A DNA stretch of 64,000 bases from the NCBI GenBank assembly GCA_009829735.1, contig CM020619.1, positions 6,340,083 to 6,404,082 on the forward strand, written 5' to 3'. The stretch is from Pyropia yezoensis (Eukaryota; Rhodophyta; Bangiophyceae; Bangiales; Bangiaceae). The first letter of the stretch is position 1. Each line of letters begins with the position of its first letter. Positions 8,850 to 28,159 of this stretch are shown here, in pieces. The position numbers and the translations under genes are program-made. The notes below the pieces were generated by a model, which saw only the letters and a program-made list of their open reading frames with translations, was not told the DNA's origin and ran no database searches.

Positions 8850-9388
8850 TGTAGCAGTACTCCCAACCACCAACCCCGAGTCAGAGAAGGAAAAGGAGTA
8901 TTGCCGATATCCCAACTGGGGACACCGGAAGCGAGCACCTCCACACAGCCGAACACGGAACTTGCGTGTGGTGAGCGGGTCAGCTCACCAAGGCACGAAC
9001 AAGATGTGTCGGAGCCAGACGGTGTTTACTTGCTTGGCCAGCCAAGGTGGGCCCTCCCCGCCTTGCTGCCCCTCCTTATCAACCCTCCTCACACGCTCAC
9101 GCAACCCCTCAAAACACTCAGAAAATGAACCCTCAAACAAACCAATCATATCACTCCACATGCAAGGCACTCAAAGCGTAGAAGTCCGTCTGGCTCCCGT
9201 GCAAAAATCCCAAGAAACAAATACCAGCAGCATTACCCTGCTCTAGTATGTCGGAAGTCCTAGTCGAATTTCCGTCCAAAAGTCAGAAGTTTCACCATCG
9301 TGGGTCGGGTGAATTTCGACTTCCGGTCAGGTCCACTTGACCCGAATCTCCAAAGTATTGGTAACGAATGCCGGCCCAATCTCCCACA
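8850..9388 (-). repeat. 3' LTR of the chromovirus
   Basis: This 539-bp repeat starts TGTAGCAG and ends CTCCCACA on the plus strand. It matches 18720-19258 over its full length with about ten substitutions and no indel seen. It is the 3' LTR because the polypurine tract adjoins its inner edge. Confidence 0.97.
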
Positions 9389-9401
9389 TTTCCCCCTTCT
9401 C
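9389..9401 (-). promoter_or_regulatory. Polypurine tract (plus-strand primer)
   Basis: On the element strand GAGAAGGGGGAAA directly abuts the 3' LTR. A purine run in this position primes plus-strand DNA synthesis in LTR elements, and it independently fixes the element's minus-strand orientation. Confidence 0.9.
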
Positions 9402-10564
9402 AAAAGTCCAGCCGTCCCTGTGGAAGTCCAATCAGCTGCGAGTCGCATTGACCGGGAGAGGAGGATGCAATTCCCGAGTCGGGATGCAAAGTACGGTGCA
9501 TCGCTGGCGTCTAGCATGCACCAGGGTTACGCCGGGGTTGCACTCGCGTCCGGCGGGGCCCTCCGGGAGAGGCAGTCCCTCTCCGTGGGGTGCGCTCTCT
9601 GCCCTGACACTGGGTAGAGGAGCCCCCTCGACGCGAAACAGGTGTGGGGGAAAGTCGTCCCCCACCTGGTCAGGGTGCTCCACGGGTGGACTCCCGTGTG
9701 GGTGAGCCCCCTAACCTGGGTGTCGGCGCTCCTCCGCCACACCCCCTGCCCCTCAACTGGAGGAATAGGGCGTCGACGTTCTCACTCGGAACGTCGACCT
9801 GCACCTGCCCCTTCAGTTGGGGTACGGTTGCTCTCGGGGGGTCGGGTTGTGTCCCCCCCTTAGAGCTCGATCCACCCCCAGCTGGCTCTCTGCGGGGTGT
9901 TCCTCACTCCTTTCCCCCCCCCTTCTAGTCGTGGTTGAGGGGTGTGCGCACCCCGAGTTGGGGGTGTTGCACTCGGTCGCGGGCGGTGGTACTCGGCCGC
10001 CGGTACGGGGTCTTCTCTCCCCTTCGTGTGTGCGGGCGGGTGTGTGTCTTCCCGCCGCTGCTCCCTCGCGTCGGCGGGTCTGTCTCTTCCCGCCGTGCGG
10101 TTTGTGTCGCCGCTTGGGGTGGTGTCTTCCCCCTCCCCGCCCCTGTGTCGGGCGTCTTCGTTGTCGGTGGGGGCGTGGGTTGTGTCCCCCCCCCTGTGTC
10201 CTCGTTGGCGGGGTTGTGTCGTCCCCGTTTGTCTTTGTTGGGGGGCGTGGGTCGTGTCCCCCCCTTGTCGTCTCCGTCGGCGGGGTTGTGTCTTCCCCGC
10301 CCTGCCCTCGTGTTGGGCGTCGTCGCTGTCGGTGGGGGCGTGGGTCGTGTCCCCCCCCCCTTTGCTCTTCGTCGGCGGGGTTGTGTTTTCCCCGCGCTTC
10401 CCCTTGTGTCGGGCTTCGTTGTTGTCGTTGGGGGGTGTGGGTCGTGTCCCCCCCCTGTTGTTCAAGGCCCAGGTTGAGTTAACCTGGTGGCGGTCAAGGA
10501 GGGGGAGCGGGTCATATCCCCCCCCCCGTGCTCAACCTGACCGAGTTGGTCAAGGTTATTCAAG
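9402..10564. other. Non-coding interval between 3' LTR and antisense ORF
   Basis: No recognised protein is encoded here. The right part (about 10017-10460) is an imperfect GC-rich tandem array, described separately. The interval lies directly upstream of the antisense ORF and is the obvious place for its promoter or 5' untranslated region. Confidence 0.5.
10017..10460. repeat. Imperfect GC-rich tandem repeat array
   Basis: Units alternate two blocks, GGGGGCGTGGGTCGTGTCCC and TCGGCGGGGTTGTGTCTTCC. Copies of the first block start near 10169, 10241, 10333 and 10429, giving unit lengths of about 72 to 96 bp. G-rich and C-rich runs in each unit could form hairpins or quadruplexes. The array ends about 100 bp before the antisense ORF's ATG. 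Confidence 0.75.
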
Positions 10565-12481
10565 ATGGCGGGTGAGCCGAGTCGGCCTTTGTCCCCGTCT
10601 CCGACGTCTCTGTCGGACAAGCGACGGGCGGGAGAGGAGGCCCTCGGGACTGAGGAGTCTCTCAGCCGGGGGTCGGCCATGGAGACGACTCGTCCCGGGC
10701 GAGGGTCGGAGGCGGCCGCCTCAGCCGTCCCCGCCCCATCACCTCCTACTGCCCCCTCGGCTGTGGTCCCACCGGGGGATGGGTCTTCCAACCCGGTGGC
10801 GGAAGGGGATGTGACTCCCATCCCCCGCCTTCCTGAGTCGCGGCTGCTACTCCCGCCGCGGCCCCGTCTTCCTATGGGGCCCCGAGCCTGGGCGCCTCCC
10901 AAGTCAGTCGGGGAGCTTCCCGACTGCAAGCTCAAGGAGGTCTACTTGATCATCCCCGAGCCACGGCGGACCGACGTATGGTACCGCCGGACTCGTCGGT
11001 ACCCCAACCAGGTGGCTCTACTTGATGGGGTGGTCTGCGACCTACCAGCGCTACTCTGCCTGGCGGACGCGCCTGAAGTCCAGGCGTTGTCAACCTCCCT
11101 CGCCATGGGGTCGGGCGACGTGGAGATCGACGACACCCACGCGGTGGTGTCTACCGAGTGGTGTGCCCTTCCTCGTCCCTACCTGGGCGGAGAGGACGCC
11201 CACGCCCAACACGGTGTGGTGCGAGAGGAGTTCCGACTCCGGGGCTCCTCGGGCTTCCTCATCCACGGGTCGCGGGTGGAGTTCACCCACGTACCTCTGG
11301 AGGAGCGTGAGCACCAGTACCCTCTTCTCCCAGGGTGGTGGGAGACAGTGGAGGTACCTTGTGGGTTTCCGGCTCGGATCCCCCTCCTCGTTGCCTACTT
11401 TGGCTCCGTGCTACGCTCCAGCTCGGAGGGCAACCGGGTCTTCGCCTACCTCGCCACGCACTGGGTGGTCGTGGTGGCTCGGGGCTGGTACTCCAATGTA
11501 GTCCATCGGGGTTACCTGTGGCACCTCCCACCGGCTCTGGTGGAGGGTATGGAAACCCTTGGCTTCCACTGGCTAGCCTTGGGCGCGGGGGACCTGGCTC
11601 CGTTCTTCCTCAAGGGTATGGTCACCCTGCACAATCGACTCGATTGGGCGCAGCTGGACCCCTTCCTCCGCCGCAACAAGCGTTCAGAGCCGGGGTTGGA
11701 GAGTGAGCCACCCCGGGAGTTCGTCCATGTCACCCACACTCTGGTGCAGGGGCAGCTGCTCCTGCGTGAGGGGTTGGGGGACCCTTCCCTTCCCTACGCG
11801 GAGGGGGTTACTCCCTCTACGTCGCCCCCTGGCTCTGGGTGGGCGACGTCATCGGCGACGACTCGTCGTGGTGCTCATCGAGGAGCCCCTCGAAGCCGCG
11901 GGCGAGCTGTGCCGACGTCTTCCCCGCGGGTCGCGACTCCGACCTCGGGGGGTGTGGAGCCGACTCAGGCTCCACCCTTCCAGTTCCTCGAGCCCTTCCC
12001 CGACGTGGCGTCGGGTTCGCTACGGGTCCGAACTCCGGTCCCGATGCCGATTGCTCTTGGCGTCGGCGAGATGTTTCCCAACTTGGGAGCCATCATGTAT
12101 GACGCCACGGTGGAGGCCTCACTTGTGGCCTCCCTTGACACGCTGGCTTGGGTCACCCGGCGTGTCAGTCACTTCCTCGCGTCGGGCGACTCAGCCACGG
12201 CGCGACAGTCATTGGCAGCTGGGGTCACTCGCCTCGCGGTTGGACACGAGTTTGTCCAACGGCTGCTGTCGACTCAGCAGCAGCTTCCGCGTCACGGAGG
12301 GAGTACCTCCGGACATCTTTCTTACGACGGGGATGGGTCCGCGAGTCGGCGGGCCCCTCCCAGTGCTTCCACTCCGGGGCCCTCCCGAGTGGGTTACGCC
12401 CCTCCGCTACCGGCCTACGACCCTGGGGGTTCGTGGTCAGGCGGTCCCTATAGTGGTGGGGGTGGGCATATGGAACGCTAG
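10565..12481 (+). CDS. Antisense accessory ORF of the chromovirus, unknown function
   Basis: A 638-codon uninterrupted ORF runs opposite to gag-pol, in the space between the pol stop and the 3' LTR. The ATG sits in a good initiation context (CAAGATGG). The first ~100 residues and the last ~230 are Pro/Ser/Gly-rich and probably disordered. Residues about 115-390 look globular, with regular hydrophobic spacing and aromatic residues (VYLIIPEPRRTDVWYRR, LLPGWWETVEVPCGF, YLATHWVVVVARGWY). I recognise no domain. Antisense ORFs downstream of pol are known in some plant gypsy elements, but similarity to them cannot be judged here. That it stays open while gag and pol each carry a stop suggests it is real. 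Roles in packaging, regulation or silencing escape are all speculation. Confidence 0.7.
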   Translation: MAGEPSRPLSPSPTSLSDKRRAGEEALGTEESLSRGSAMETTRPGRGSEAAASAVPAPSPPTAPSAVVPPGDGSSNPVAEGDVTPIPRLPESRLLLPPRPRLPMGPRAWAPPKSVGELPDCKLKEVYLIIPEPRRTDVWYRRTRRYPNQVALLDGVVCDLPALLCLADAPEVQALSTSLAMGSGDVEIDDTHAVVSTEWCALPRPYLGGEDAHAQHGVVREEFRLRGSSGFLIHGSRVEFTHVPLEEREHQYPLLPGWWETVEVPCGFPARIPLLVAYFGSVLRSSSEGNRVFAYLATHWVVVVARGWYSNVVHRGYLWHLPPALVEGMETLGFHWLALGAGDLAPFFLKGMVTLHNRLDWAQLDPFLRRNKRSEPGLESEPPREFVHVTHTLVQGQLLLREGLGDPSLPYAEGVTPSTSPPGSGWATSSATTRRGAHRGAPRSRGRAVPTSSPRVATPTSGGVEPTQAPPFQFLEPFPDVASGSLRVRTPVPMPIALGVGEMFPNLGAIMYDATVEASLVASLDTLAWVTRRVSHFLASGDSATARQSLAAGVTRLAVGHEFVQRLLSTQQQLPRHGGSTSGHLSYDGDGSASRRAPPSASTPGPSRVGYAPPLPAYDPGGSWSGGPYSGGGGHMER

Positions 12482-12609
12482 AGTCAGCGGTCGAACGACT
12501 TGTTCTTTTCTTGGCGAGAAGAGTGGTGTGTGTTCTTCTCGTTTTGTATTGTGCCATAGTCGGCTTTGTTAGTAGAGAATCTTTGAAGAACCATGGTATG
12601 CGTTTGTAC

Positions 12610-15600
12610 TCATGGTTGGCTTGCCGCTCTGCTCTGACTTGGAGCAGGGACTTCATCCACCGACGTACGAGTGCTACGTCGGCGTATACATATGCCCGCA
12701 GCCTGGCAGTGTCTACGGACCTTCTCTACTGGTAGGTCCTCTACAAACTCCCATGTGTCGGAAGTTGGTCCATACCCGAACCACCTGACTCGGAGCATGA
12801 GTCGCCCCGACTCATCGTATCCGTGTCCGACAAACTTGTCGAACACCGCCTCCAATGGCTTATTGGAAAAGGTCGGCAAGGATGGGACTTTCCATGCTTG
12901 TAAGGCCCTTTCCCAAGCGGGGTCTCCCTCTGGGGGTTCGGGTGCGCGAGTCGCGTGATTCCCATTTATTGTCCGGATACCATCATCACTCTCGATGGTT
13001 AACCGACGTCCATCCGTTTTAAGGATGTGATATGGTCCCAGGGTTTTGAATACCAATTTCCCTCCCTTATTGTCGTGGGAGTTGACATAAATCCAATCTC
13101 CAACTCGGAGCGGATCGCGACGATGTCTGACTCGGACATCGAAGTACCTCTTGTAACGAGCTTGGGCCTTCTCCATAGTGGCCCGGACAAGGGGTATCAT
13201 CTCCTCCAATCTCTGGAGTCGGGAGGCTTTCGCCTGACTCGGTGTTTGAGTCGAAGTCTCACCCTCTGTCTGGGTGAGACGCTCCACAGCTACTGACGGA
13301 AGTCGTCGGGGACAGACAAAGGCAAACGGTGCCTCTCCCGTACTACTGTGTACCTGGGAGTTGTATGCTGTCACGAGTAGTGTCGCATAACGAGCCCATG
13401 TGACTACATGGTCATGGACATAGTGACGCAACTGGCGCACTAGAGTCCTGTTGAATCGTTCCACCTGCCCATTAGTCTGGGGGTGGTAAGGGGTTGCGAA
13501 GTTCGTCTGCACCCCCAACATCTTCATGACTCCCTGATACAGGACGGACGCAAACTGTGGTCCGTTATCCGAAAGGATAGAGTCGGGGATGCCATAACTG
13601 GCAACCCAGACGTCGAGTAACTCACTCAGAACGTCCACGGCTGTGATATCCTTGAGTGGGGATACCCGTGTGAGCTTAGTAAAGCGATCACACATCACCA
13701 GAAGGTACTCATATTCTTCAGGTGTTCGTGGTAGTGGACCGAGTAAGTCCACTGCTATCGCTGCAAACGGCTCTGTTGCAGGAAAGAGTCTCATGGAAGA
13801 AGTCTGCCGGGACTCCATGAGTCTATTCTTTGCGCAAGTGGCGCATGCGGCTACATACCCGTACACATCAGCCACGAGTGATGGCCAATAGTACTTCTTG
13901 CGTAGGGTCTGATACATCCTCGTAGACCCTGGGTGTCCACCCAACGGTGAGGAGTGCTCCCGTTGGAGGATACTCTTGCGTAACTCCTTGGGGACGACGA
14001 CTTGCTTGTCCCCCTGGGGATATCCCTTACGGCAGAGTATGCCGTTGTCATTCAGGAAGAACCGAGTCGGATGAGCCTGGTCGAGCTCCTTCCTGAGTCG
14101 TCGACAAAGTTTGTCGCTCTCCTGTGCCTGGACAAACTCATCCAGAGACACGGGTAATAGCTTGGCCATGCCAGGCATCCTCGGGTCGAGGACAGTTCCG
14201 GAGCGAGTGGTCACTGCCACATGAGGGAGTTCCTTAGGGATGGGGGAAGAGTCTTTCCCATCCGTCGGTATGCGAGACAACGCGTCCGCAACCGCATGCT
14301 TCGGGCCTGGCCGATATTCAACATCATAATCGAACTCAGCGAGGCAGAGTCGCCATCGATTGAGTCGGTTATTCGTACAGGCTGTAGTGGTGAGTATCCA
14401 CTTCAAAGCTTTGTGGTCACATCGAATGAGGAACTTCCTTCCTTCGATGTATGGCCGTAGCATGGAGACTGCCCATACTACGCCAAGGCCCTCTACCTCC
14501 GTCACAGAATAGTTCTTCTGGGCCGGTGAGAGTCCTTTGCTAAAGTAGCCAACGGGTAAATACTCCCCCGAAGGCTGTTGTTGGAGTATGCAACAACCGA
14601 GTTGGTCGTGACTTGCGTCCACATCAACAATGTAGTGAGCCCCCGGTCTGGGGATCGCTAACACCGGTGGGTTGCAGAGGAGTTCTCGCAACCTATCAAA
14701 CGCTTCTTGCTCCGGGGGTCTGGGAGCATCCAAGCGCTTGGGCATCTTGGAACTTACCAAGTGGTTCAACGGTGCAGACACTTTGGCATAGTTCGCCACA
14801 AAGCGTCTGCATACGTTACACATACCCAGGAAGCTCCTGAGTTGTGTCTGCGTCTGGGGGAACTTCGCCCGACTGATGGCCATGAGGTTCTTCTCATTGA
14901 CCAGAATGCGACCTGGCCGGACTATATGGCCGAGGTACTCCACCTCATTACTAAAGAGGTGACACTTCGTAGGTTTGAGTGTTACTCCTGCTTCACCCAA
15001 CAGGGTAAACACTCTGTCCAAGTGGGACAGGTGTTCTTCGGCAGTCCCGGAGAACACAATGATATCGTCCAGATACACCAGGGCGATCTGCCACTTGACT
15101 CCGGCAAGTATCACGTCAATAGCACGCTGGAAAGTCGCAGGTGCATTGCAAAGCCCGAAAGGGAGCCGTGTACACTGATAAACTCCACAGTGACACGTGA
15201 AGGTGGTCAAGTGTCTGTCCTCCTTGCGGATGGGTATCTGCCAGTACCCCGCGTTGCAGTCCAACGTGGAAAAGTACTGTGCCTCACCGAGTGAGTCGAG
15301 GCAATCGTCCATACGGGGTAAGGGGTAACTATCCCTTACCGTCCGCTCGTTTAGCTTACGATAATCGATGCAGAACCGCATCGTGCCGTCTGACTTGGGC
15401 ACCAAGACTATGGGACTGGCCCACTCACTTGAGCAAGGCTCAATGACACCCATGTCTTGCATCCGTTGGACCTGCTCTCGGGTGAGTTCCCGTGAGTCTG
15501 GTCCCATACGGTAGGGACTCAGGCGAACTGGCCTAGCCCCTGGCTTCAACACGATTCTGTGTTCGGTGGCCTTGATGAGCCCAAGGTCACCATTCCACAA

Positions 15601-15873
15601 TTTGTGATGCTTCTGGATTAACTCATCCAGTCGTCCATGTAAACACTCCGGGATGTTCTCCCGATGTACCGTCGGCAACTTAGCCGTCGATGAACTCGAT
15701 TGGTCGGCAGAGCCTGCCGTTCCAATATCCTTCCATTGCTGTTGAGTCACAGCAACGACATTCCCCTCAAAGGTAGAGATCGACGCAATCTTCATGCCTC
15801 CGGGGAGTCGTCGAGGTTCTTCCGACGTGTTGAGGACCTCCACCCACCAAGTTTGGTCATCCCCACAAGTCAT
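12610..15873 (-). CDS. Chromovirus pol: RT, RNase H, integrase, chromodomain
   Basis: This 1,087-residue open segment carries the replication and integration enzymes. RT spans about 120-330, with FCIDYRKLNERTV, FGLCNAPATFQRAID and the intact catalytic LVYLDDIIVFS near residue 267. RNase H follows, with DVDASHDQLGCC, CDHKALKWIL and VADALSRI. Integrase has the zinc-binding HSSPLGGH...CATC region and intact DDE motifs (AVDLLGPLP, ILSDNGPQFAS, YHPQTNGQVERFN). A chromodomain closes the protein at about 1010-1060 (FVGHGYDESGR, RVRWFGYGPTSDTW) and would steer integration towards marked chromatin. The segment is in the same frame as the protease and is separated from it only by a TAG at 15880-15882. 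The ATG at 15871-15873 is simply the first after that stop and need not be a real start. Confidence 0.96.
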   Translation of the reverse strand: MTCGDDQTWWVEVLNTSEEPRRLPGGMKIASISTFEGNVVAVTQQQWKDIGTAGSADQSSSSTAKLPTVHRENIPECLHGRLDELIQKHHKLWNGDLGLIKATEHRIVLKPGARPVRLSPYRMGPDSRELTREQVQRMQDMGVIEPCSSEWASPIVLVPKSDGTMRFCIDYRKLNERTVRDSYPLPRMDDCLDSLGEAQYFSTLDCNAGYWQIPIRKEDRHLTTFTCHCGVYQCTRLPFGLCNAPATFQRAIDVILAGVKWQIALVYLDDIIVFSGTAEEHLSHLDRVFTLLGEAGVTLKPTKCHLFSNEVEYLGHIVRPGRILVNEKNLMAISRAKFPQTQTQLRSFLGMCNVCRRFVANYAKVSAPLNHLVSSKMPKRLDAPRPPEQEAFDRLRELLCNPPVLAIPRPGAHYIVDVDASHDQLGCCILQQQPSGEYLPVGYFSKGLSPAQKNYSVTEVEGLGVVWAVSMLRPYIEGRKFLIRCDHKALKWILTTTACTNNRLNRWRLCLAEFDYDVEYRPGPKHAVADALSRIPTDGKDSSPIPKELPHVAVTTRSGTVLDPRMPGMAKLLPVSLDEFVQAQESDKLCRRLRKELDQAHPTRFFLNDNGILCRKGYPQGDKQVVVPKELRKSILQREHSSPLGGHPGSTRMYQTLRKKYYWPSLVADVYGYVAACATCAKNRLMESRQTSSMRLFPATEPFAAIAVDLLGPLPRTPEEYEYLLVMCDRFTKLTRVSPLKDITAVDVLSELLDVWVASYGIPDSILSDNGPQFASVLYQGVMKMLGVQTNFATPYHPQTNGQVERFNRTLVRQLRHYVHDHVVTWARYATLLVTAYNSQVHSSTGEAPFAFVCPRRLPSVAVERLTQTEGETSTQTPSQAKASRLQRLEEMIPLVRATMEKAQARYKRYFDVRVRHRRDPLRVGDWIYVNSHDNKGGKLVFKTLGPYHILKTDGRRLTIESDDGIRTINGNHATRAPEPPEGDPAWERALQAWKVPSLPTFSNKPLEAVFDKFVGHGYDESGRLMLRVRWFGYGPTSDTWEFVEDLPVEKVRRHCQAAGICIRRRSTRTSVDEVPAPSQSRAASQP

Positions 15874-15879
15874 GGGGCC

Positions 15880-16650
15880 CTATGCAACTTGCACTTGGTG
15901 AGTATAATAGACTCGGTCCACGGGGGAAACGAGTCCATTCCCTCGAAACCGTGTGCGTACTCGCACAAAGGTCCTTGATCGGGGCGGGACTACCGTACCC
16001 TTACATACTCGTACATGGGTCGTAGAGCCTCCACCCTTGGGAGAGTTTTCCCTTGGTTGATGAGTCGTACGGGAAACAGTCCTCCCTTTACGCAATATGG
16101 GGACAGTCTCTCCATTACGCATTCGGATTATCCCTTCCGGTCCACAGACGGCCGGGACATGGAGGTCCAGATAGTCAGTTCCCAGGAGTACGGGAACTGA
16201 CATATTGGAGACTACTCCAAAGTTCACCTGCGTCTGGTAGAACCCAATGCAAACAGTCAATGCAATAGACCCAACAATGGGGAGGAGTCCCCCATTGACA
16301 TCAAACATACGCCACTCGGGTGAGCCGGCGGGACTCACATCCGTCCCCTCTGGCAATAAGTCTTGCCTAATGAGAGAGGCAGCAGAGCCTGTGTCGACTA
16401 TGACACGAGAGGTAAACTCATATCCATCCTGCAGCCAGAGTCGAGCTGCGACCTGGTAGTTACTCCCTACCAGCACTGACACAATCCGACTCGGGTCGTG
16501 CTTCTGAGGAGGGACCTTGTCTCTAGGCCTCACCCCTCGAGGTCGAGTCAGGACCTTCACTCTCCCATGGGTCGGTGAGTGTGAAGCAACCCGCTTCATT
16601 ACCGCTGGAGCCTTTGGGTCAGTCTTAGTCCCAGCGGCTAGGCGTTTCCC
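15880..16650 (-). CDS. Chromovirus protease domain (-1 frame relative to gag)
   Basis: This frame encodes the aspartic protease that matures Gag-Pol. It is entered by -1 frameshifting at GGGAAAC (16644-16650); an internal ATG also occurs at 16597-16599. The catalytic motif VDTGSAASLI lies near 16371-16400, followed by the flap-region and GTDYLDLH motifs of retropepsins. Residues after the protease (RGNGLVSPVDRVYYTHQ) already belong to the linker domain that precedes RT in gypsy elements. The frame ends in TAG at 15880-15882 within that linker, and the linker resumes in frame directly afterwards. The stop is therefore either decay (a C-to-T change on the element strand would make it) or a readthrough site. 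Confidence 0.9.
   Translation of the reverse strand, partial: GKRLAAGTKTDPKAPAVMKRVASHSPTHGRVKVLTRPRGVRPRDKVPPQKHDPSRIVSVLVGSNYQVAARLWLQDGYEFTSRVIVDTGSAASLIRQDLLPEGTDVSPAGSPEWRMFDVNGGLLPIVGSIALTVCIGFYQTQVNFGVVSNMSVPVLLGTDYLDLHVPAVCGPEGIIRMRNGETVPILRKGRTVSRTTHQPRENSPKGGGSTTHVRVCKGTVVPPRSRTFVRVRTRFRGNGLVSPVDRVYYTHQVQVA
16582..16650 (-). promoter_or_regulatory. Programmed -1 ribosomal frameshift signal (gag to protease)
   Basis: On the element strand the gag frame reads GAG GGA AAC GCC TAG, so the slippery heptamer G GGA AAC is in the correct phase one codon before the gag stop. The -1 frame is exactly the protease frame. A 6-nt spacer (GCCTAG) is followed by a perfect 7-bp stem, CCGCTGG (16631-16637) with CCAGCGG (16602-16608), around a 22-nt loop. 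Three bases later a second hairpin (TGAAGC/GCTTCA, loop GGGTT, 16582-16598) has a loop complementary to GACCC in the first loop (16616-16620). A kissing-loop or pseudoknot is therefore possible. Confidence 0.85.
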
Positions 16651-16937
16651 TCATCCGACTCGGATGATGGAGTATCCTTGCCACTTGAGCTGGGGGAAGA
16701 GGTTTCCCCCTTCTCAAGCGTGGACTCATTCTCTGACTGAGGTTGAGTCATGGCCGTCACACGTGTGGTGTGCGGCCGGGTATCCGAATCAGTCCTCGGA
16801 ATACCGAGCTTCCCGATACGAGCCAACAGGGCTCTCAGACGAACGTCCAGAGTGGGGCATTGGGCTGCCCAGTGTCCCGACTTGGAACACTGCCAACACG
16901 GCCGATCACTCATCGACGCCGATGGCCACGCTTTTCC
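16638..16937 (-). CDS. Gag nucleocapsid zinc knuckle segment
   Basis: This segment continues the gag frame after a TAA at 16938-16940. It encodes a CCHC zinc knuckle, CWQCSKSGHWAAQC (C-x2-C-x4-H-x4-C), which binds element RNA, followed by a Ser/Glu-rich acidic tail ending at the TAG at 16638-16640. An ATG at 16911-16913 lies just before the knuckle, but normal gag architecture would join it to the capsid upstream. The TAA therefore looks like a disabling mutation. Confidence 0.88.
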   Translation of the reverse strand, partial: GKAWPSASMSDRPCWQCSKSGHWAAQCPTLDVRLRALLARIGKLGIPRTDSDTRPHTTRVTAMTQPQSENESTLEKGETSSPSSSGKDTPSSESDEGNA

Positions 16938-18402
16938 TTATGACTTATCAGGGATAGCGGCCACCATACCTTCCGTCTCTCGAGTTGAGGACGAAGGTAC
17001 TGCAGGGTACGTCCGCGTGTAGGAAGGCACCTTTGCAGTTCTGCGGAAGCGACTTGCTTCCACTCCCTTAACTTCTTTCTCTCGTTCCTTCCGCTGCTCA
17101 GACACGAGCCAGCGGTACTCATCACCCTTAGTCTGGGCGATGCGTGCCAACTCCGCCAGAGTCATGGTCGGAGTATTACGCTCTCGCACAGTCGCTCGAG
17201 CTGCTCGGTGGACACCCTCCACAAAGCGTCCCTTAATGACTCCTTGGGGATATAGGAATCCACAGAGGACGTTCAGCTGACGGAGTCGTTCAGCGAACTC
17301 CCGTTCCTCTTCACCCTTACTCTGGGTGGCGCGGTTGAATTCTTCAACCTGCACAGACAAGGAAGCCTCGTCTGCGTGAAGATGAAGGATCCAATTAACC
17401 AACTCCAGGTAGGAGGTCACCTCACCCGGGTTACCACCATGCCGACTTGGCATGACGTTCATCACCTCGGAGCGGAGTGGCTCCTTGGTGAAGTCCTGAA
17501 GCATGAAAAACTCTTCAGCTTCAGAGACATCATTGTCATCGCAGGCTTTTGCGAACTTCCGCAAAAACTGGAAGACCTTCAGGGGTGGTGTCCCGTCCCA
17601 TTCTGAACGGACCCCGAAGGATTGCGCAACGTGTTTCTTGCGCCGGCCCAGGGTACGGGCCTGACTATTCGAGTAGGTCAACGACTTGTTGACCAACCCA
17701 TATGTCTCACAGTCGAAGACATCCTTGAACAATGGATTGTTCACCACGATCTTTCCTGGGACGACCCTAGTCCCAAGACGGTCCGTGTGAGTCACACGAC
17801 CACGTCGGGTAAGATCCTCTTCACCCGACTTGCCACTTGCAGAGGACTCAGACTCTGAGTCCACCTTACGACGGAGAGTACGTCGAATCTCCCGTCGCTC
17901 CTGACGCCTCGAGGCCTGCTCAGGCGGAGGGGTGTCCCCCTTCAACGCCTTCCCCACCTCCTCTCGCACGACTTGTGCGATGGCGGTCATCACCGAGTTA
18001 TCCACGATACCGGATGACCCAGGTGGAGCTTGACTCGAGCTCCCACCCGGTCCTTCCGGCACCAGTCGTGGCGCGGACCCACCAGCCCGGGGTACGGAAC
18101 TCCCCGTCCCGTCACCTCTGCCGGTCGGCGGTCCCATGCCGAAGTGAGTGTCGTCACACCCCGAAGAGGTTGCCGGAGCCTGACGCTGGCTCGGCGCTCC
18201 CACCGGAGAAGGGCGAACTCCGCCCGTCTCTTCCGGGGACGGCCTGGGAAGGAACCTGGCCGACCGCCGTCGGGGTCCAACCTCTGGACCCACCACATCC
18301 GCACTGTCCGGCCTGGGTGGTACTCCGCCCGTCGGGGGAGGACTACGCTCCCCCTCCCCAGGTACACTCGGCGCAATGGGGGGGGTGTCCCTCGCCAGCC
18401 AT
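16938..18402 (-). CDS. Gag (N-terminal region and capsid)
   Basis: This frame encodes the structural protein that forms the particle. Residues up to about 240 are Pro/Ser/Arg-rich. The capsid-like helical region follows, with FQFLRKFAKACDDND, LELVNWILHLHAD, FAERLRQLNVLCGFLYP and VHRAARATVRERN, which match retrotransposon Gag capsid composition and spacing. The frame stops with TAA at 16938-16940. The open frame has no ATG at its start, since a TGA lies directly upstream. An ATG in good context (GGAGATGGC, 18400-18402) lies in a different frame, separated by an 8-base homopolymer at 18378-18385. A one-base length change or sequencing error in that run may explain the mismatch. I place the start at that ATG. 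Confidence 0.85.
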
Positions 18403-18719
18403 CTCCACAAGAGTCACGTGGAATCAACCAAAACGACCAAACGGTGTCCAGAGTCGGGGATCGTCAGCTAGGGAGTTCCTAGAGCACGTTCCACCCCTCC
18501 ACCTGCCACAAGGAAGGCGGTGAGGTTTCCCGAAACTCCGGGTCTCCCACCAAGACTCACGGTGGCCAACCTCGTCACCCAGCGAACGCTCGGAACGTAG
18601 GCGAGTCGATCGTGTCACCGGAAGTCTCGGTGCCGAAGGGGGAGAGGGGCCAACTTGGTCCCGTCTCCGGTCAAGGGAGGTACCGAAGTCGATATCCTCT
18701 CCCCCGCTGACCCACCAAC
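18403..18719 (-). other. 5' leader of the chromovirus
   Basis: This ~317-bp stretch between the 5' LTR and gag holds the candidate primer-binding site at its outer edge. RNA packaging signals would be expected here, but nothing specific can be identified from sequence alone. Confidence 0.6.
18704..18717 (-). other. Candidate tRNA primer-binding site
   Basis: Two bases inside the 5' LTR the element strand reads TGGTGGGTCAGCGG. The leading TGG complements the CCA end of a tRNA and the 2-nt spacing is normal. I could not match the following bases to a specific tRNA, and the common initiator-Met site (TGGTATCAGAGC) is not present. Confidence 0.5.
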
Positions 18720-19258
18720 TGTAGCAGTACTCCCAACCACCAACCCCGAGTCAGGGAAGGAAGAGGAGTATTGCCGATATCCCAACTTGGGACACCGGAA
18801 GCAAGCACCTCCACACAGCCGAACACGGAACTTGCGTGTGGTGAGCGGGTCAGCTCACCAAGGCACGAACAAGATGTGTCGGAGCCAGACGGTGTTTACT
18901 TGCTTGGCCAGCCAAGGTGGGCCCTCCCCGCCTTGCTGTCCCTCCTTATCAACCCTCCTCACACGCTCACGCAACCCCTCAAAACACTCAGAAAATGAAC
19001 CCTCAAACAAACCAATCATATCACTCCACATGCAAAGCACTCAAAGCGTAGAAATCCGTCTGGCTCCCGTGCAAAAATCCCAAGAAACAAATACCAGCAG
19101 CATTACCCTGCTCTAGTATGTCGGAAGTCCTAGTCGAATTTCCGTCCAAAAGTCAGAAGCTTCACCATCGTGGGTCGGGTGAATTTCGACTTCCGGTCAG
19201 GTCCACTTGACCCGAATCTCCAAAGTATTGGTACCGAATTCCGGCCCAATCTCCCACA
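18720..19258 (-). repeat. 5' LTR of the chromovirus
   Basis: This 539-bp copy of 8850-9388 has TG...CA ends. It would contain the element's promoter, directing minus-strand transcription. No clear TATA box was seen on the element strand. Confidence 0.97.
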
Positions 19259-24247: not shown

Positions 24248-27200
24248 CTACCAGTACGTGTTGTACCGGAGCCACTTGCCGAGCTTGTTGCCCGTCCTGT
24301 CGCCCTTGCGGATGAAGAACTTGCGGAGCTCATCGTAGAAGATGATGAAGATAGCAAACGGGATGGCGGGAAGCAGGTGCACCACCCGGAGGGGCCGTGT
24401 GCCAAACACGTCGTGGAGCCACGGCACGTACACGAGCAGCGCAATCAGGACAATCTCCTGGATGACACCAGCAATCAGCACCTTGTTCTTGACGCCCTGC
24501 GTGAAGAGGGAGAGGACGCGGGTCTTGCACACGAGGATACCGCCAATCTGCACCACCACAATGGACACGAGGAAGGACGTCTGCGCGCGCTTGATAATCT
24601 CATCCTGCTCCTCACGCGTCCACAGGTCAAAGCAGCCTTGACCAGCGTCATCACCCTCAATAACGTCCGAGTTCTCCACCCCCGTGTTGATGCCCAGGTC
24701 CGTCACTACGCCTGTCGCGGCGAAGCACGCCGGGTTGTTGTTGCCGAGGGCGCACGTAAACTCGCGGCAGCTGGTGCGGCCGGTCAGGCGGCCAATCTGC
24801 TGGAACATGGCGTTGTATTCGCGGCCCGCCCGGTCGGTGGCGGCGCCAAGCGTGGCCGGCGCGGCGCCCGACGGCAGCTGCGGGGAGACGAGCTGGAACT
24901 CTGGGTTGAACCCGCGGTTGGCACGGAAGAAGGTGTCGAAGTCGCCATTCTCCGTGCGGAACCAGTCCGCATCAAAGGAGCGGCCCCGCGGCCGCACGCG
25001 CTCCACAAACAGCCACCGCATGTCGTCCGACTGCTGGGTGGAAAACGTTGTGTCCGTGTCGAGGCCAATCAGCGTGCCCGCCGACAGGCCGTAGTCGTTG
25101 AACACCACCAGGTAAGTGAAGAAGCCAGCCAGGGCCTGGATGACGCCAATCTGGAAGTAAGAGAAGGAGATCAGGCGGCGGTTGACCAAGCGGTCCACCT
25201 GCGCGTCGCGCGGCGGGCGGCGCATAATGTCCGCCTCCGCCTCCTCGTACGCCAGCGAAATGGCCGGCAGCAGATCCGTCCCCAGGTCAATGCACAGAAT
25301 GAGGAAGGTGGTCAGCGGCAGCGGGACGCCAACCAGGATGAAGGTCAGGAAGGGGGTGATCTCCGGGATGTTGGAAGTCAGCGTGTAGGCAATCGACTTC
25401 TTGAGATTGTCGAAGATGAGGCGGCCCTCCTCGACGCCCGCCACAATGCTGGCAAAGTTGTCGTCAAGGAGGATCATGTCGGCCGCCTCCTTAGACACGT
25501 CCGACCCAGAGATGCCCATGGCCACCCCAATGTTGGCCTTCTTGAGCGCCGGCGAGTCGTTGACACCATCTCCCGTGACGGCCACAATGTGGTTGAGCCG
25601 CTGGTTGTTCTCCACAATGATCAGCTTCTGCTGCGGCGACGTGCGCGCAAACACAATCTGGTCGTGCGCGAGCACCCGGTCCCAGTCCGCCTCGTCCAGG
25701 TCCTTGATCTGCGAGCCGGGCACCACAATGGACTTGATCTCGCTGCGGTCCACCTCCTCGACGGGGATGCCGCGCTCGCGCGCCACGTCCTCGGCCGTCG
25801 GGTCGCGGATAATGTTCACCTGCTTGGCAATCGACTTGGCCGTCGCGGGGTGGTCACCCGTGACCATCACCACCTTAATGCCCGCCGACTGGCAAGTGGC
25901 CACGGCGCCCGGCACCGCCTCACGGGGCGGGTCGAGCAGCGCCATCAGCCCCACAAATGTAAAGCCCTCCATGGGGAAGTTGGGGTCCTCCGTGTCAAAC
26001 TCAAAGTCGCGCGTAAACGACGCGTCCAGTGGCAGCTGCGCAAAGCCCAGCACCCGCTCGCCCCGCTCCATCATAAACGCCAGGTGCTCGTTAATCTTGG
26101 CACGGATCTCAGCCGACATGGGCACCACCCCCGCCGACGTGAGAGCGTTGGAGCACTTGTCCACCACCCGCTCGGGTGCGCCCTTGACGCACATCCGCAG
26201 GCGGTCAGGCACACCCGCGGCGGCCGCCACCGAGTCTTCATTGATGGTAATCATGAACTTGTTGGTCGAGTTGAACGGGATGCCCGACACCTGCGGGTTG
26301 GCCTTACGGTACGTCTCGACAGACTCAATCTTCTCGCAAAACTTGAGGATGCCCGCCTCCGACGCGTCGCCATTCACCTTCCGCTCATCAATCGAGCGGT
26401 CGGGGAAGTCGTCCATCTCCTTCGAGTCAAAGGTGGCCTTGCCACAGTTGCACGCAATGTAAAACAGGTCCTTGTAGCACGCATTGTCAGAGTTAAAGGT
26501 CGCTTCGGTGGCCGCGCCCTTGGTCGTGTGGAGCTCCAGATCGTACACGAGGTGCACAATGGTCATGCGATTCTGTGTCAGGGTGCCCGTCTTGTCAGAG
26601 CAAATGCACGTCGTCGACCCCATCGTCTCGACGGCCTCGAGCTTCTTGACCAGCACCTGCTTCTTGGACATGCGCTGCGCCGACAGCGTCAGCGATACCG
26701 TCACAGTGGCGAGCAGGCCCTCGGGCACGTTGGCGACAATAATGCCAATGCAAAACACAATGTTGGAGATGATGTCCGTGTCCTTGGCCACCCCAATGAT
26801 GAAGAAGGCAATGCCCAGAAAGATGGCCACCGCCGAGATGATGATGACAAAGTGATGAATGTCCTTCTGCAGCGTCGTCGTCTCAGACGAGGAGCCCGCC
26901 GCAAGGCCCGCAATCCGACCAAACACCGTGTCATCACCCGTGTTGACCACCACCCCCTGTGCCGTCCCGTCGACGGCAAGGGTGCCGAAAAAGGCCAGGT
27001 TCTTCGTCTCGAGTGGGTTCTCATCCGTGCAGTCGACGGTACGGCCAATGGGCTCCGACTCACCCGTCAGCGGCGAGTTGTCCACCTTGAGCTTCTGGTT
27101 GGAGACAATGCGCAGGTCGGCCGGGATCTTGTCGCCCAGCTTCACGTCGCACAGGTCACCGACCACCAGGTCGCGGGCAGGCACCTCAAGGACCTTGCCC

Positions 27201-28159
27201 CCACGGTGGACAACCGTCTGCGGGGGCAGAAAGTTGGCGAACTTCTCCATCGTCTTCTCGCTCTTAAACTCCTGCGCAAACGTAAACAGGGCGGTAACGA
27301 TGACCACTACGTACAGGATGATGCCGAGGTAGAGGTTGTCCTTGGACTCGGGGTGGAGGCCGAAGCCGATGAAACACAGGATGGCGGCGACCTGCAGGAG
27401 GATCGCAAAGAAGTTGACAAACTGGAGCAGCAGCTTGACGTACCAGGGGGTCACCTTGGGGGGGGACAGGACGTTCGGGCCATCCCGCTCCAGGCGCAGC
27501 TTGGCCTCCGCATCCGTCAGGCCCTGCGTACAAAACCAGTGGGGTCAGTGGGCGGCAGAGACAGAGTAGCGCAGCGCAAGCAGAGAGACAGAATGGAGGC
27601 ACAAAATGGAGCGCCCAAGTCAGTCTCCGCCAGTCAAGGAGCTCTCGGCGCCTCTTCCCGTGACCGCAACCGCTCACCGACGCAAACCACTTACGAGGGC
27701 TGTCGTTCCTTCCCGTCGTGACCCCCATCTCGGCACCACGCGACGAGCCACTTACCCAGCCACCCACTGCACCATCCTCCCACCCAGCTCCTCTCCATCC
27801 AGAGCCCGCCTGTCCCCCCCGCCTTCCCCCACGCACCCCCCCACTCCCCCGTGCGCCCCAGCACCGAAGCAGCAAAGACCCGGTCCAATACGTACATTTT
27901 CCGCATCCGTCTTGAGGCGCGTCACCATCTCCTCGACGGACACCTTGTGCTCCCACATCTCCACCTCCTTTTTCAGGTCCACGGGCCCGTCCTTGGCTTT
28001 GCCCCCATCCGCCTTGCGCTCGAGCGCCTGCGACACGCGGGCGCTCGTCTCCGAGTACTGGCGCGCCATCTCCAGCTCATTGGGGGCGCGCGTCCGCTTC
28101 GCCTCAATGTCCGAGCCATCCGCGGCAGCGACGCCGGCAGCTGCGGCGGGCGGCGTCAT
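24248..28159 (-). CDS. Na+/K+-type P-type ATPase alpha subunit (two exons)
   Basis: This plasma-membrane pump exchanges cations using ATP. Exon 1 is 27896-28159 and exon 2 is 24248-27523. The 372-bp intron has GTACGT at its 5' end and TACGCAG at its 3' end and is in phase 0, giving about 1,179 residues. The start ATG has an ideal context (GCCGCCGCCATGA). Exon 1 ends with the N-domain (LKKEVEMWEHKVSVEEM) and exon 2 resumes with GLTDAEAKLRLERDGPN. Core motifs are intact: PLTGESEP, VANVPEGLLATVTVSLTL in M4, the phosphorylated Asp in CSDKTGTLTQNRM (near residue 398), MVTGDHPATA, TGDGVNDSPAL, and SNIPEITPF with CIDLGTDLLPAISLAYE in M5-M6. These match the Na+/K+ (IIC) class rather than H+ or Ca2+ pumps. 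The M7-M8 outer loop is about 170 residues with four Cys, against about 40 in animals. Confidence 0.95.
27524..27895 (-). other. Intron of the Na+/K+-type ATPase gene
   Basis: GT-AG intron supported by loss of homology inside it and by exact phase-0 joining of the N-terminal domain to the GLTDAEAK segment. The acceptor is TTTTGTACGCAG. Stops in all three sense frames were not checked exhaustively. Confidence 0.9.

What the first reader, a model, noticed from the sequence alone, without database searches (positions are those of the whole stretch)
16582..16650. Canonical -1 frameshift signal with a possible kissing-loop in a Ty3/gypsy chromovirus
The heptamer G GGA AAC sits in the right phase one codon before the gag stop, the -1 frame is exactly the protease frame, a 6-nt spacer follows, and a perfect 7-bp GC-rich stem comes next. 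A second hairpin 3 nt later has a loop (GGGTT) complementary to GACCC in the first loop. Many chromoviruses use a single Gag-Pol ORF, so a retrovirus-style signal with possible loop-loop contact is notable.
Basis: partly seen in the sequence, partly recalled or inferred. Interest (0 to 1): 0.8.

Follow-up and report, generated by a model that had tools for sequence, protein, structure and literature searches.

The report
Gag-Pol frameshift signal in nori retrotransposon
A seaweed retrotransposon carries a classic retrovirus-style signal that probably makes some ribosomes slip back one base so that its enzymes are made as an extension of its coat protein; related elements share the signal, but the proposed extra contact between its two RNA hairpins is unproven.

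Summary
On the minus strand, G GGA AAC (16650-16644) is followed by one codon, the gag stop, a perfect 7-bp stem and a second hairpin. The protease-pol frame is the -1 frame and is closed directly before the heptamer, so a shift must fall within 13 nt. In the same genome (a flanking gene is 100% identical to Pyropia yezoensis Na+-ATPase), 38 of 39 fetched copies keep this layout. Two further families (one with a 43-44% identical protease) also have G GGA AAC + codon + stop, with a stem starting right after the stop; three two-sided compensatory changes separate the lineages. Other Ty3/gypsy clades there also have pol in -1, with other candidate slippery sites. Best reading: ordinary -1 programmed frameshifting (about 0.9), a new member of a known kind. 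The loop-loop contact beats shuffles in the window's lineage but is absent in family 2, shows no covariation, and three of the four listed one-mismatch copies change it: possible, not established (about 0.2). The window copy itself is broken (in-frame stops in gag and pol). No frameshifting was measured.

The parts
18720..19258 (-). 5' LTR of the element (539 nt, TG...CA)
   Evidence: 98.1% identical to 8850-9388, 10 differences in 539
16638..18413 (-). gag frame, open from the TGA at 18416 to TAG 16640-16638, with a premature TAA at 16940-16938; zinc knuckle after it; start codon not determined
   Evidence: PF00098 E 8.5e-5 in the piece 16641-16937
16644..16650 (-). slippery heptamer G GGA AAC
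   Evidence: kept in 38 of 39 fetched copies
16638..16643 (-). 6-nt spacer: codon GCC and gag stop TAG
   Evidence: stop begins 3 nt after the heptamer in 38 of 39 fetched copies
16631..16637 (-). stem 1, 5' arm CCGCTGG
16609..16630 (-). loop 1, 22 nt; GACCC at 16616-16620
16602..16608 (-). stem 1, 3' arm CCAGCGG
16593..16598 (-). hairpin 2, 5' arm TGAAGC
   Evidence: U-A to C-G change on both sides in subfamily 1b, L090
16588..16592 (-). hairpin 2 loop GGGTT, putative kissing partner of GACCC
   Evidence: altered in 2 of the 4 listed one-mismatch copies, its partner GACCC in a third
16582..16587 (-). hairpin 2, 3' arm GCTTCA
12610..16650 (-). protease-pol frame (-1 relative to gag), with a premature TAG at 15882-15880
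   Evidence: RVT_1, RNase H, Integrase_H2C2, rve; chromodomain E 9e-4 below cut-off; stops
9389..12609 (.). 3.2-kb stretch between pol stop and 3' LTR with an antisense (+) 638-aa ORF 10565-12481; part of the element, not of the signal
   Evidence: a 1000-base piece lies at a constant distance from a listed signal or protease in 28 of 40 listed copies; no Pfam match
8850..9388 (-). 3' LTR, preceded in element sense by purine tract GAGAAGGGGGAAA

Best explanation
This is the gag-pol -1 programmed ribosomal frameshift signal of a multicopy LTR retrotransposon of the Ty3/gypsy (chromovirus-like) group. Shown: heptamer in phase, narrow overlap, stem right after the gag stop, conservation and compensatory change across families. 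Inferred: most ribosomes stop at TAG and make Gag; a minority pause at stem 1 (possibly reinforced by hairpin 2), the two tRNAs on GGA AAC re-pair one base back on GGG AAA, and translation goes on as Gag-Pro-Pol. The window copy is a decayed member with premature stops; the functional inference rests on its relatives.
For: Overlap: the -1 frame is closed 0 nt upstream of the heptamer and gag stops 3 nt after it in 38 of 39 fetched fam1 copies; the -1 frame stays open to the edge of the fetched piece in 29 of those 38. 96 of 128 genomic places within 3 mismatches match all 69 nt; reversed control 0. Family 2: G GGA AAC GAA TGA in 18 of 18 fetched, -1 frame open to the edge in 18. Family 3: same layout in 17 of 20 fetched, -1 frame open to the edge in 11 of 17, plus L091 and L093. 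The stem begins at the first base after the stop: all six pairs in the 18 of family 2 (11 distinct sequences), all seven in 15 of 20 of family 3. Two-sided changes: stem 1 pair 4 C-G to U-A (fam1/fam2), hairpin 2 pair 1 U-A to C-G (fam1/1b), stem 1 pair 1 G-C to A-U (fam3a/3b, 4 of 19 read). In 40 fam1 copies 0 of 36 structural positions vary against 59 of 410 flanking ones (Fisher P 0.005; copies not independent). A separate clade with C CCA AAA has strong stems 4-7 nt on (z -2.8 to -4.0 in 4 of 4 folded).
Against: No frameshifting, fusion peptide or ribosome density was measured. Folding energies of the fam1 signal are ordinary (z -0.5 to -1.7), as are L060 of family 2 (-1.5) and L110 of family 3 (-0.2). 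With G-U pairs allowed the family 2 stem is not beyond chance (488 of 4000 shuffles). For the commonest family 2 sequence the best 77-nt fold is another one. Family 3's stem closes a loop of about 60 nt; 4 of 20 copies (L118, L123, L124, L125) have broken pairs and L122 was not read. L066 (69% protease identity) has lost the gag stop and one stem 1 pair, but its protease frame is also broken.
Confidence: 0.9

Rival explanations
1. The -1 signal is real and its stimulator is a kissing-loop (elaborated pseudoknot): GACCC of loop 1 pairs with GGGTT of hairpin 2.
For: Loop-loop duplex -7.4 kcal/mol, matched by 0.4% (both loops shuffled) or 1.1% (loop 1 shuffled) of shuffles; fam1b -7.6, 0.1% and 0.5%. 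GACCC and GGGTT are kept in fam1b although other loop 1 bases changed, and 0 of 10 contact bases vary in 40 copies.
Against: No two-sided change in the contact. Three of the four listed one-mismatch copies change a contact base (28 further mismatched copies not listed). L066 keeps GACCC but has GGGCT. Family 2 has a first and second hairpin at matching places but no loop-loop complementarity. Another pairing, loop 1 with the 31 nt after hairpin 2, is reached by only 1.5% of shuffles, so the contact is not the only option.
Confidence: 0.2
2. Protease-pol is made by termination and re-initiation or internal initiation at an ATG after the gag stop (16599 here), not by frameshifting.
For: An ATG in the protease frame begins 38 nt beyond the gag stop, and in family 2 an ATG overlaps the gag stop.
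Against: No ATG position is shared: subfamily 1b has ACG at the fam1 site (L090); in family 3, 9 of 19 copies read have no ATG in the -1 frame within 120 nt and the others have them at scattered places. It gives no reason for an in-phase G GGA AAC at the gag end in three families.
Confidence: 0.06
3. The layout is left over in dead copies, with no function today.
For: The window copy has two premature stops and its LTRs differ at 10 of 539 sites; 9 of 38 fetched fam1 copies have a stop in the -1 frame within the fetched piece.
Against: 32 of 39 fetched copies have no gag stop in 1257 nt upstream, at least 32 listed places have a 1346-aa open pol frame without stops in the protease match, and constraint on the structure is visible between copies and families. 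For the window copy alone this may be true.
Confidence: 0.05

Closest known systems
Retroviral gag-pro/gag-pol -1 frameshift signals using G GGA AAC (use by particular retroviruses recalled)
   Same: Same heptamer class (review PMC5009743, passages read, lists G_GGA_AAC among the most shift-prone for mammalian cytoplasmic ribosomes), spacer within the usual 5-9 nt (PMC7618472, passages read), GC-rich structure
   Different: Host is a red alga and the element a Ty3/gypsy retrotransposon; no efficiency known; stem begins directly after the gag stop
PEG10 (Ty3/gypsy-derived) and animal LTR retroelements with pol in -1
   Same: -1 frameshift from gag into pol; the review cites 28 of 51 surveyed animal retroelements with pol in -1 (PMC5009743, passages read)
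   Different: PEG10 uses a pseudoknot; here no pseudoknot is established
Green-plant chromoviruses (e.g. Beta vulgaris)
   Same: Ty3/gypsy, gag then protease, RT, RNase H, integrase, chromodomain
   Different: Gag-pol in one continuous ORF in Beta chromoviruses (PMC3605345, passages read); the two plant types with separate frames in the 2003 survey were +1 (PMC5009743, passages read)
Kissing-loop (elaborated pseudoknot) stimulator of human coronavirus 229E
   Same: Stem-loops after the slippery site paired through apical loops (PMC5009743, passage read)
   Different: Here only a 5-nt contact with one G-U, no covariation, absent in family 2

Membership tests
-1 programmed ribosomal frameshift signal | X XXY YYZ heptamer in the zero-frame phase | tested here: met
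   G GGA AAC
-1 programmed ribosomal frameshift signal | downstream ORF in the -1 frame, overlapping at the heptamer | tested here: met
   13-nt overlap; 38 of 39 fetched copies
-1 programmed ribosomal frameshift signal | stimulatory structure 5-9 nt downstream | tested here: met
   6-nt spacer, 7-bp stem; compensatory changes; folding energy itself ordinary
-1 programmed ribosomal frameshift signal | measured shift to the -1 frame | not testable with these tools
   needs reporter, peptide or ribosome profiling data
Kissing-loop (elaborated pseudoknot) stimulator | apical loops of two hairpins complementary beyond chance | tested here: met
   0.4-1.1% of shuffles in fam1, 0.1-0.5% in fam1b; not in family 2
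Kissing-loop (elaborated pseudoknot) stimulator | contact conserved or covarying across relatives | tested here: not met
   no two-sided change; absent in family 2; changed in 3 of 4 listed one-mismatch copies; kept in fam1b
Kissing-loop (elaborated pseudoknot) stimulator | contact formed and needed in the RNA | not testable with these tools
   needs probing and reporter work
Ty3/gypsy chromovirus | LTRs, gag with zinc knuckle, then PR-RT-RNase H-INT order | tested here: met
   protease profile match weak (PF13975 E 0.025)
Ty3/gypsy chromovirus | C-terminal chromodomain on integrase | tested here: inconclusive
   PF00385 E 9e-4, 19.5 bits against a cut-off of 25.1
Ty3/gypsy chromovirus | placement in an RT tree | not tested
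   no tree built

The most novel reading that the evidence does not exclude
Several lineages of Ty3/gypsy elements in one red alga share a -1 frameshift design whose stimulatory stem is locked to the gag stop codon, and the window's lineage has added a two-hairpin kissing-loop stimulator, a class I recall mainly from coronaviruses.
Probability: 0.18. Interest if true: 0.55.

Novelty: new member of a known kind. Interest (0 to 1): 0.4.

Why it matters
It documents retrovirus-style -1 gag-pol layout in red-algal Ty3/gypsy elements, whereas the green-plant relatives in the passages I read have one continuous frame or +1 (PMC3605345, PMC5009743). One genome holds three related families with G GGA AAC and other clades with different candidate slippery sites, a natural series for asking which parts of a stimulator are needed. 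In the listings of my searches of the held library I saw no paper on frameshifting in red-algal retrotransposons; most of the listed papers were not opened.

Tried and rejected
Related loci in viral contigs: one scan gave two loci with a 26-residue match at 50% identity, not followed; a scan with the protease alignment confirmed none. Rfam: 0 matches at gathering scores; no tRNA genes in the window. Direct-repeat searches missed the LTRs because the 3' LTR lies outside the spans I gave; a wider blastn found them. The idea that the 3.2 kb before the 3' LTR is a stray insertion in this copy was rejected. A pseudoknot for family 2 (loop 1 with GGACGA after hairpin 2) was tested: reached by 3.3% of shuffles for one variant, 25% for another, 33% for the whole loop; set aside as unproven. 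L094/L106 (CAG GAA AAC TAG) and L095, L097-L099, L103, L104 (TCG or TCA AAA AAC GAG TAA) have pol in -1 but their shift sites and structures were not resolved. One L127 fold used a wrong occurrence of the motif; redone.

Full report
What is there. The element lies on the minus strand. gag runs in one frame to TAG 16640-16638; protease-pol lies in the -1 frame to TGA 12612-12610. Pol pieces match RVT_1, RNase H, Integrase_H2C2 and rve, the gag end a CCHC zinc knuckle, and the pol end a chromodomain below the curated cut-off. LTRs of 539 nt with 10 differences lie at 19258-18720 and 9388-8850, with a purine tract before the 3' LTR. The window copy has two premature in-frame stops, gag 16940 and pol 15882; 32 of 39 other fetched copies have no gag stop in 1257 nt upstream of the signal, and at least 32 listed places have a 1346-aa pol frame.

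Host. The gene at 24251-27454 is 100% identical over its length to a UniRef entry named Na+-ATPase, Pyropia yezoensis, so the host is that red alga (taxonomy) or a very close one.

The signal. G GGA AAC, GCC, TAG, then a 7-bp stem, 3 nt, and a 6-bp hairpin. The -1 frame is closed immediately before the heptamer, so a shift is confined to 13 nt in 38 of 39 fetched copies; the other, L022, has one changed base in the heptamer. In 29 of the 38 the -1 frame stays open to the edge of the fetched piece; 9 have a stop in it. Whole-genome pattern search: 128 places within 3 mismatches; the list shows 100 of them, 96 exact and 4 with one mismatch; the reversed control has none.

Relatives as a test. 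Family 2 (protease 43-44% identical; 1293 candidates in the first look, 40 scored) has G GGA AAC GAA TGA in 18 of 18 fetched, then CCGTTG/CAACGG. Family 3 has G GGA AAC GCG TAA or GCC TGA, mostly, and GGGGCGG/CCGCCCC or AGGGCGG/CCGCCCT, in 17 of 20 fetched (L119, L122 and L124 lack the exact site) plus L091 and L093; all seven stem pairs stand in 15 of 20, six in L118 and L125, fewer in L123 and L124, L122 not read. Subfamily 1b: L090 keeps the site and stems (protease frame truncated in the fetched piece), L066 is decayed. Three two-sided pair changes separate these lineages. Shuffles reaching a stem as long starting exactly after the stop, Watson-Crick only: fam1 19, fam1b 3, fam2 98, fam3a 84, fam3b 22 of 4000; with G-U allowed 49, 31, 488, 220, 63 of 4000. 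Energies of the downstream piece: fam1 z -1.65, fam1b -1.99, fam2 -3.27 (L058) and -1.54 (L060), fam3a -0.21 (L110) and -2.13 (L115), fam3b -2.67 to -3.65 (L126-L128).

Constraint within the family. In 40 copies (21 distinct) 4 of 69 signal sites vary against 35 of 250 upstream and 24 of 160 downstream; none of 26 stem-arm or 10 contact positions varies (Fisher P 0.005 for the 36 positions, 0.02 for arms only, 0.03 for the whole signal). Copies are related and were picked by overall similarity, so these P values are optimistic; the four one-mismatch places listed, three of them changed in the contact, were not in this set.

Other clades in the genome. Of 20 loci taken by chromodomain score, 18 carry TGCCCAAAAGG, with pol in -1 of gag where both frames were readable and stems of z -2.8 to -4.0 in 4 of 4 folded. 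L094/L106 and the L095 group also have pol in -1, shift sites unresolved; L094's downstream fold is ordinary (z -1.09). So -1 recoding looks general for this host's Ty3/gypsy elements, in the sample read.

The kissing loop. GACCC/GGGTT is stronger than 98.9-99.6% of shuffles in fam1 and 99.5-99.9% in fam1b, which is not independent; in L066 12-23% of shuffles do as well, and family 2 has no such contact. Of four listed one-mismatch copies, three change a contact base. I call it possible, not shown.

Literature. Passages of PMC5009743, PMC7618472, PMC3605345, PMC6317226 and PMC2864245 were read, no whole paper. They make G_GGA_AAC a known efficient site, 5-9 nt a usual spacer, small GC-rich stem-loops stimulators in some viruses, and -1 pol common in the animal elements surveyed in 2003, with green-plant examples single-frame or +1.

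Noticed in passing
window 9389-12609 (antisense ORF 10565-12481, +): Between the pol stop and the 3' LTR the element carries 3.2 kb with a 638-aa ORF on the opposite strand, no Pfam match; a piece of it sits at a constant distance from a listed signal or protease in 28 of 40 listed copies, so it belongs to the element.
   Followed up: partly
L068, L070-L078, L080-L087, L100, L102, L105, L107: A separate clade has slippery site C CCA AAA in the zinc-knuckle end of gag and, in the 4 folded, a strong stem 4-7 nt on.
   Followed up: partly
L095, L097-L099, L103, L104: Another clade ends gag with TCG or TCA AAA AAC GAG TAA and has pol in the -1 frame; downstream structure unclear.
   Followed up: no
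L094, L106: Gag ends CAG GAA AAC TAG, pol open in -1 with a long overlap, followed by a possible 8-bp stem GGGGTCGG/CCGACCCC; a non-canonical site if used.
   Followed up: no
C1:24550701 and C1:24557175 of G000: Two copies of the signal on the same strand 6474 bases apart, perhaps tandem elements.
   Followed up: no
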